64,000 nucleotides of DNA, taken from Bacillus shivajii. Lineage in GTDB: Bacteria; Bacillota; Bacilli; Bacillales; Salisediminibacteriaceae. The position numbers and the translations under genes were made by a program. The stretch lies in assembly GCF_020519665.1 (NCBI RefSeq), contig NZ_CP084703.1, positions 4,376,120 to 4,440,119 on the forward strand, given 5' to 3'. Position 1 is the stretch's first letter; each line of letters starts with the position of its first letter. Below, one piece after another: positions 17,837 to 18,316 of this stretch. The notes under the pieces were generated by a model. The model did no database searches. It saw nothing but the letters and a program-made list of their open reading frames with translations, and was not told the origin of the DNA.

Positions 17837-17855
17837 TTACTTATGATATGGCTCG
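17837..17855 (-). other. rlmH 3'-end attachment-like site
   Basis: On the minus strand the last codons read CCATATCATAAGTAA and contain TATCATAA (17848-17841). From memory this is the core of the rlmH attachment site used by staphylococcal SCC elements. It marks the boundary between the recombinase unit and the cargo to its left. That it is used here is inferred. Confidence 0.5.
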
Positions 17856-18316
17856 TTTTTCTGGATCTTGAATGCACGATATACTTGTTCAAGAAGGATC
17901 AACTTCATCAATTGATGAGGGAATGTCATTTTTGAAAATGACAGCTTCTGATCCGCCCTCTTTAATACATCATCACTCAGTCCATTCGAACCACCTATTA
18001 CAAATGCTACCTGACTTTTTCCGTATATACTTAACTTCTCCATCTCATCTGCTAGTTTCTCTGATGACCACTGATTTCCTTCGATTGCTAACGCTATAAC
18101 ATATTGGTGAGCTTTGATTTTACTTAGGATCCGCTCCCCTTCTTTATCCTTGATTGAAACTAACTCTTTTTCACTCAACTGTTCTGGAGCTTGTTCATCT
18201 GCAATTTCATCCATCGTTAACTTACAGTATGGACGCAGACGCTTCTCAAACTCTGCTATACCTAACTTGAGGTATTTATCTTTAATCTTACCAACACTTA
18301 TAATTTGAATTTGCAA
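17837..18316 (-). CDS. rlmH: Second, element-borne RlmH (23S rRNA pseudouridine-1915 N3-methyltransferase)
   Basis: With TTG at 18316 as start, six bases after GAGGTG, the product is 159 residues, the normal length for RlmH. A GTG at 18325 would add three residues but lies inside the site. It contains the SPOUT knot signature VAFVIGGSNGLSDDVL and FPHQLMKLILLEQVYRAF and ends in the conserved NEPYHK. It is clearly diverged from the copy at 22476-22961 (my estimate is about 60% identity), so this is not a recent tandem duplication. It lies at the left end of the recombinase-bearing unit. Because the resident copy has lost the conserved His-Lys tail, this copy may be the functional one. Confidence 0.93.
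   Translation of the reverse strand: MQIQIISVGKIKDKYLKLGIAEFEKRLRPYCKLTMDEIADEQAPEQLSEKELVSIKDKEGERILSKIKAHQYVIALAIEGNQWSSEKLADEMEKLSIYGKSQVAFVIGGSNGLSDDVLKRADQKLSFSKMTFPHQLMKLILLEQVYRAFKIQKNEPYHK

What the first reader, a model, noticed from the sequence alone, without database searches (positions are those of the whole stretch)
17837..18316. The element brings its own complete, diverged rlmH
A second full-length RlmH of normal 159-residue length with an intact NEPYHK tail sits at the far end of the recombinase unit. A mobile element that damages a host tail and carries a replacement for the same housekeeping gene would be self-compensating. Its last codons may even be host sequence: if the left crossover lies in the tail, the element gene lacks its own stop and is completed by the host attB half.
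Basis: inference. Interest (0 to 1): 0.8.

Follow-up and report, generated by a model that had tools for sequence, protein, structure and literature searches.

The report
Island replaces the gene it breaks
A 26-kilobase defence island sits in the end of a bacterium's rlmH gene, where the gene's last two, likely essential, amino acids have been replaced by others, and the island carries its own complete rlmH that is predicted to take over methylation of the ribosome.

Summary
In detail: 17837-18316 (-) is a full-length RlmH (159 aa, NEPYHK end), 63% identical to the native copy beside htrA. The element is not a 4.6-kb unit ending in rlmH2's tail. It runs 26.4 kb from attR in the native rlmH (22499-22492) to an attL outside the window (-3927), carries BREX and IetAS, and has rlmH2 inside it. 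attL still holds the native His-Lys-stop: rejoined flanks read NEPYHK*, while the occupied native gene reads NEPY-ILQG*. In E. coli RlmH the equivalent His and Arg are each needed for activity, so the native copy is predicted dead and rlmH2 active. Among 24 loci where a related recombinase lies against rlmH, the tail is lost in 7, and each of those genomes has two rlmH genes; it is kept in 17, each with one. Two of the seven were predicted from recombinase C-termini before their DNA was seen; they carry a distant, 133-residue RlmH. The window-type carried rlmH groups with native genes of Salibacterium-like hosts. Circularisation and enzyme activity are untested, and the 24 loci are not independent.

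The parts
17837..18316 (-). rlmH2, carried RlmH, 159 aa, TTG start (GTG at 18325 possible), tail NEPYHK
   Evidence: 80-83% identical to carried copies in G191, G216, G407, G105
22476..22961 (-). native rlmH beside htrA; last codons replaced, ends NEPY-ILQG
   Evidence: congener G001 has its only rlmH here, ending NRGEPYHK
22492..22499 (-). attR crossover core GAACCGTA, followed on the minus strand by element sequence CATACTTCAAGGGTAAAA
   Evidence: exact crossover dinucleotide not resolved
1..22491 (.). part of the 26.4-kb element inside the window; the rest runs left to attL at coordinate -3927 (G000:C1 about 4372192)
20832..22541 (+). large serine recombinase, 569 aa; its last codons are the antisense of native rlmH
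   Evidence: Resolvase, Recombinase and Zn_ribbon_recom domains; start as in P0002
20069..20839 (+). putative regulator (HTH by eye), no Pfam match
   Evidence: relative beside the recombinase in G216 and G105, weak in G407
18700..19782 (-). phage/plasmid-type replication protein
   Evidence: no Pfam match itself; relatives carry PF05144 or that name
17160..17780 (+). RadC-like protein
   Evidence: PF04002; same neighbour in all five window-type loci
15313..16973 (+). three ORFs of unknown function (15313-15597, 15648-16238, 16254-16973)
   Evidence: no PADLOC match; the last two no Pfam match
752..14774 (-). BREX set: brxA 14160-14774, brxB 13615-14163, brxC 10038-13601, pglX 6504-9989, pglZ 3958-6462, DrmD/BrxHI-like helicase 752-3931

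Best explanation
This is a 26.4-kb cassette-chromosome-like defence island in the 3' end of the native rlmH: its presence replaces that gene's last codons (His-Lys becomes Ile-Leu-Gln-Gly), likely inactivating the enzyme, and it carries inside itself a complete, diverged rlmH that is predicted to supply the missing 23S rRNA methyltransferase. Steps: (1) the large serine recombinase likely joins attB and attP within the shared GAACCGTA (inferred). (2) The native His-Lys-stop now stands at the far end of the element (attL) and element codons follow the native Glu-Pro-Tyr (shown by the two junctions). (3) The native RlmH lacks the His and basic residue of the catalytic tail and is predicted inactive. 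(4) rlmH2 keeps Tyr-His-Lys and is predicted active; the element lineage probably took it from a Salibacterium-like host. (5) Precise excision would restore the native gene (inferred from the rejoined flanks) unless it has decayed, as in G105. (6) With its own rlmH aboard, the element's att arm was freed from having to encode His-Lys (inferred).
For: Both junctions read in the sequence, and rejoined flanks restore EPYHK* in 5 of 5 elements whose two ends were found. Tail lost in 7 loci, and each genome has 2 rlmH; tail kept in 17, and each has 1. Two of the seven were predicted before their DNA was seen (note) and carry a distant RlmH (31% identity to rlmH2). E. coli RlmH Y152F, H153F and R154A have no detectable activity (PMC5430550, passages); query YHK aligns with E. 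coli YHR. Native copy with an early stop in G105. Carried window-type rlmH is 79-84% identical between genera and lies away from its hosts' own copies in the tree.
Against: The 24 loci are related: the recombinase tree needs two changes but its well-supported branches alone force only one. No activity, expression or circle was tested; no promoter above chance was found near rlmH2. Six of the seven tail-less native copies are still open apart from the tail, and dN/dS, where measurable (4 of 10 pairs), gives 0.05-0.18, no clear sign of relaxation. The recombinase frame is broken near its end in G105. No clean empty site was found.
Confidence: 0.78

Rival explanations
1. rlmH2 is ordinary cargo with another role (for example protecting the ribosome), and loss of the native tail is a side effect that hosts tolerate.
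For: Six of seven tail-less native copies remain open apart from the tail; the island carries other defence genes.
Against: The second rlmH goes with tail loss in 24 of 24 loci, and in two element types with different rlmH genes. No tail-keeping genome of the 17 has a second PF02590.
Confidence: 0.1
2. The native RlmH still works with its new tail; rlmH2 is redundant, or serves as a spare landing site for further cassettes.
For: Tyr is kept in all seven altered tails; a small subset of RlmH orthologues end at the His (PMC5430550, passages); composite islands at rlmH are known (PMC10061031, passages).
Against: The tail His and basic residue are each needed in E. coli and kept in 120 of 120 listed relatives. 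G105's native copy has an early stop. Carried copies lack the GAACCGTA core in 7 of 7, so they look like poor landing sites.
Confidence: 0.07
3. One reading: a 4.6-kb element whose left crossover lies in rlmH2's tail, so that host attB completes rlmH2.
For: rlmH2's tail resembles attB, as any rlmH tail does.
Against: A true attL with the element's terminal repeat stands at -3927; radC beyond rlmH2 travels with related recombinases; rlmH2 lacks the GAACCGTA core.
Confidence: 0.03

Closest known systems
SCC and ECC cassette chromosomes, and SCC-like islands downstream of rlmH in Bacillus and other genera
   Same: Large serine recombinase, insertion in the 3' end of rlmH, terminal inverted repeats, defence cargo, composite islands (PMC10061031, PMC6222049, PMC10581047; passages only).
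   Different: SCC and ECC att sites share TATCATAA, which includes the His codon; here attR lacks it, the native tail is not rebuilt, and a whole rlmH is carried.
Lambdoid phage 21 at icd
   Same: Integration gives a housekeeping gene an alternative 3' end (PMC4129442, passages).
   Different: There the phage supplies 165 bp of the gene's end; here the new end is predicted to be non-functional and a separate full gene is carried.
SpyCI islands at mutL of Streptococcus pyogenes
   Same: An island in a housekeeping gene affects its function, and excision matters (PMC4129442, abstract start and passages).
   Different: The passages seen do not describe a replacement mutL on the island.
Tail-keeping relatives (for example G103, G172, G097)
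   Same: Related recombinase against rlmH, radC nearby, arm sequence ending GGGTAAAA.
   Different: Their arm still encodes His-Lys and their genomes have one rlmH.

Membership tests
RlmH (PF02590), for rlmH2 | SPOUT_MTase domain over the full length | tested here: met
   198.8 bits against a cut-off of 27
RlmH (PF02590), for rlmH2 | Catalytic tail Tyr-His-Lys/Arg | tested here: met
   NEPYHK; aligned to solved RlmH chains
RlmH (PF02590), for rlmH2 | Methylates Psi1915 of 23S rRNA | not testable with these tools
   no assay
Functional RlmH, for the native copy | Catalytic tail Tyr-His-Lys/Arg | tested here: not met
   NEPYILQG
SCC-type cassette chromosome | Large serine recombinase and insertion in the 3' end of rlmH | tested here: met
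SCC-type cassette chromosome | TATCATAA motif in both att sites and rlmH end rebuilt | tested here: not met
   present at attL, absent at attR; motif as given in PMC6222049
SCC-type cassette chromosome | Recombinase belongs to CcrA, CcrB or CcrC | not tested
   no tree with named Ccr proteins was made
SCC-type cassette chromosome | Replicative helicase or Pol-SSB genes beside the recombinase | not tested
   not searched as such; a PF05144-type replication protein stands there
SCC-type cassette chromosome | Excision as a circle | not testable with these tools
   no reads

The most novel reading that the evidence does not exclude
The element is a reversible takeover of a housekeeping enzyme. Integration switches the host's own rlmH off through its tail while a foreign RlmH on the cassette serves the ribosome, so the host comes to depend on the cassette, and for good once its own copy decays as in G105. 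The carried copy is diverged enough not to recombine or mix with the dead native subunit, and its codons at the crossover (CCATA instead of CCGTA) make it a poor target for the cassette's own recombinase. The trick arose at least twice, with two distantly related rlmH genes.
Probability: 0.38. Interest if true: 0.85.

Novelty: new variant of a known kind. Interest (0 to 1): 0.75.

Why it matters
Elements that insert in housekeeping genes are usually thought harmless because their ends rebuild the gene. Here one lineage has likely given up rebuilding and carries a whole foreign copy instead, and a second element type does the same with a distant gene. That gives a simple rule (broken tail, carried copy) that can be read from recombinase C-termini alone, a route by which housekeeping genes are replaced horizontally, and a possible way in which defence islands such as BREX make themselves costly to lose.

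Tried and rejected
Rejected: a 4.6-kb element with its left crossover in rlmH2's tail (attL is at -3927). My own early note also held a tail-swap version of that idea; one search ended it. Rejected: rlmH2 as a recent duplicate of the native gene (63% identity, different part of the tree). Rejected: rlmH2 as the native copy (htrA neighbour and congener point to the other).

Led nowhere: the one scan of genome contigs gave one irrelevant hit. Viral contigs gave 80 loci of at most 37% recombinase identity; one (L006) holds the last 45 codons of an rlmH, none a full one. Plasmids: best hit 39% identity. The replication protein had no match in phages. The class search with P0063 found 3 of 398 genomes, all tail-keeping except the window's own; the family of G750 gave 1 of 41, G750 itself. 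Promoter scan at chance. dN/dS saturated in most pairs; of the carried copies only one pair of ten was usable (0.05). No clean empty site: G001 has other DNA beyond its rlmH. attL of G191 and G105 was not found in the stretches fetched.

Dropped before the count of 24: L153 (G146) and L156 (G063), where the recombinase is not next to rlmH (both genomes have one rlmH), and L117 (G015), with no rlmH in the 14 kb fetched. Other weaker recombinase hits were not examined. In G840 the recombinase match stops about 140 bases short of rlmH and its frame is shortened; it is counted as tail-keeping.

Literature; in their listings I saw no island said to carry rlmH (one search found no paper). Read as passages only: PMC5430550, PMC10061031, PMC6222049, PMC10620731, PMC10581047, PMC4129442. 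PMC6222049 mentions two rlmH alleles under 75% DNA identity among enterococci, not followed up. Subscription papers are mostly not held.

Full report
WHAT IS THERE. The minus strand at 17837-18316 encodes a complete RlmH of 159 residues ending NEPYHK. The genome is one 4.44-Mb contig with one more rlmH, at 22476-22961 (-), beside htrA. That copy is the native one: the congener G001 has a single rlmH in the same place beside htrA, 87% identical and ending NRGEPYHK. The native copy here ends NEPY-ILQG*. The two copies are 63% identical.

THE ELEMENT'S ENDS. Synteny with G001 on the left resumes only near window coordinate -5253, outside the window. (Coordinates left of the window count base 0 as the base just before base 1.) At -3927 the minus strand passes from TTTTACCCTAAAAATAGGTACGGTGAACCGTA to TCATAAGTAA: an element end followed by the tail of an rlmH. 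The other end is in the native rlmH: GAACCGTA followed by CATACTTCAAGGGTAAAA. TTTTACCCT stands inverted at the two ends. Rejoined flanks give NRNEPYHK*, and the element measures 26,419 bases. The same was done for G216 (17,091), G407 (29,597), G791 (14,530) and G837 (17,310): rejoined flanks read EPYHK* in 5 of 5. In G837 the core at attL reads GAGCCGTA. attL was not found for G191 or G105 in the stretches fetched. In the window rlmH2 is therefore inside the element, about 4.2 kb from one end and 21.8 kb from the other.

CARGO. From the left: IetS and IetA (outside the window), a BREX set (brxA, brxB, brxC, pglX, pglZ and a DrmD/BrxHI-like helicase), three unassigned ORFs, radC, rlmH2, a phage/plasmid-type replication protein (named from its relatives), a putative regulator and the large serine recombinase.

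THE RECOMBINASE READS INTO RLMH. In an alignment of 26 family members most C-termini continue as the antisense of the rlmH 3' end. The residue opposite rlmH's His codon therefore reports the state of the neighbouring rlmH tail: Met means CAT; Val I read as CAC, which holds in the loci checked; others mean lost. Of 120 listed proteins, 73 read as kept, 32 as lost and 15 could not be read. The lost ones fall in two sets: 24 close relatives of the window's recombinase (Asp, Glu or Tyr) and 8 others (Ala or Ser), of which two are named as Paenibacillus.

THE RULE IN DNA. A search of 397 genomes of the order found 21 with a recombinase at E <= 1e-120, the window's own included; the regions of the other 20 were fetched. 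Four (G191, G216, G407, G105) share the window's design: native rlmH with a lost tail (LV, LV, IF, IF), recombinase, an rlmH 80-83% identical to rlmH2 with intact NEPYHK, and radC. The replication protein was matched in only one of these four, G216, at the cut-off used. Fourteen others have the recombinase against an rlmH with an intact tail and no second rlmH; two were dropped because the recombinase is not next to rlmH. With G020, G791, G837, G840 and G750 there are 24 loci: tail lost in 7, kept in 17. Genome-wide counts are two rlmH genes in 7 of 7 (protein search for five; PF02590 for two) and one in 17 of 17 (PF02590). If the loci were independent the chance of this split would be 2.9e-6. 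They are not: the recombinase tree needs two changes of state, and its well-supported branches alone force only one. The Salibacterium-like genome G107 has an rlmH close to rlmH2, but as its only, native copy beside htrA.

A PREDICTION THAT HELD. After seeing the Ala/Ser type I noted that those elements should carry their own rlmH (note). A class search found none of them. I then located the genus through the antisense tail and found two such genomes and one tail-keeping one among 75. The two have native tails EPYRL and EPYRF and a second PF02590 protein inside the element. It has 133 residues from its first Met, is 31% identical to the window's rlmH2 and ends NNHPYHK; the two copies are 75% identical to each other. 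This is a different rlmH in a different place, so its acquisition looks independent.

WHY THE NATIVE COPY IS PROBABLY DEAD. In E. coli RlmH, Y152F, H153F and R154A have no detectable activity, and the tail of one subunit completes the active site of the other (PMC5430550, passages). The query's YHK aligns with E. coli YHR. In the native copy here His and Lys are Ile and Leu, with two more residues. All 120 listed relatives of rlmH2 end YHK or YHR. In G105 the native gene also has an early in-frame stop, as far as a draft assembly can be trusted. Against: six of the seven altered native genes are otherwise open, and dN/dS shows no clear relaxation where it can be measured. No activity was measured.

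WHERE RLMH2 CAME FROM. In the rlmH tree the carried window-type copies lie with native genes of genus g64 (G107, G304, G190, G215) and G006, outside a 100/99 branch of 26 other host copies that includes their own hosts. Whether the five carried copies form one clade is not settled. Named proteins agree: recombinase and rlmH2 relatives sit on contigs of equal length in Paraliobacillus quinghaiensis, Cytobacillus sp. Hz8, Virgibacillus ainsalahensis and Gracilibacillus xinjiangensis. Counting the window, 10 of the 24 close recombinases share a contig length with a listed rlmH2 relative, at 79-84% identity for the nine others. Lists are capped and clusters show only their longest contig.

TWO FURTHER DETAILS. 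The att arm of the nearest tail-keeping relatives reads CATAAATAAGGGTAAAA (G103) or CATAAGTGAGGGTAAAA; in tail-losing ones CTCGTTTAAGGGTAAAA, ATCTTTTAAGGGTAAAA, ATACTTCAAGGGTAAAA, CGCCTTTAAGGGTAAAA or CGCTTTTAAGGGTAAAA. The His-Lys codons have changed in place, as expected if carrying an rlmH removed the need for them. And the tails of carried copies lack the crossover core GAACCGTA (0 of 5 window-type, 0 of 2 of the other type), while 23 of 24 native genes have it. Among the four Salibacterium-like natives two have it and two do not, so this may be inherited rather than selected.

HOW IT COMPARES. Insertion in rlmH by large serine recombinases, terminal repeats and composite islands are known from SCC, ECC and SCC-like islands (PMC10061031, PMC6222049, PMC10581047; passages). 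The usual rule is that the element's end completes the host gene, and phage 21 is cited as giving icd an alternative end (PMC4129442, passages). This element departs from the rule and carries a full replacement. The searches listed under Tried and rejected showed no report of that.

Noticed in passing
left of the window, about -4899 to -3927 (L158, about 15100-16074): A 0.97-kb stretch between two rlmH-tail-like sites holds one gene (L158:15197-15913 +) that looks by eye like a 23S rRNA pseudouridine synthase: a possible mini-cassette.
   Followed up: no
L158:16166-18628(-) and 18631-19674(-), outside the window: IetS and IetA anti-phage genes lie in the same element as BREX.
   Followed up: partly
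20832-22541: The recombinase's last codons are host rlmH antisense; in a circle it would end VRFTVPIFRVK instead. The host therefore writes the recombinase's C-terminus.
   Followed up: partly
G837 joined stretch (L207+L206+L201), about 30467, 32290 and 35159: Three further rlmH-tail-like sites beyond attL suggest a composite of several cassettes.
   Followed up: no
L116 (G020), 9807-13066: A tandem pair of large serine recombinases, the second reading into rlmH antisense, with the rlmH tail kept: a layout like ccrAB.
   Followed up: partly
L141, 10299-10781 (G105): The native rlmH has an early in-frame stop while the carried rlmH is intact; the recombinase frame is also broken near its end.
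   Followed up: yes
L006 (viral contig), 16132-16266: A contig classed as viral ends in the last codons of an rlmH and holds two large serine recombinases, so it is probably an rlmH island.
   Followed up: no
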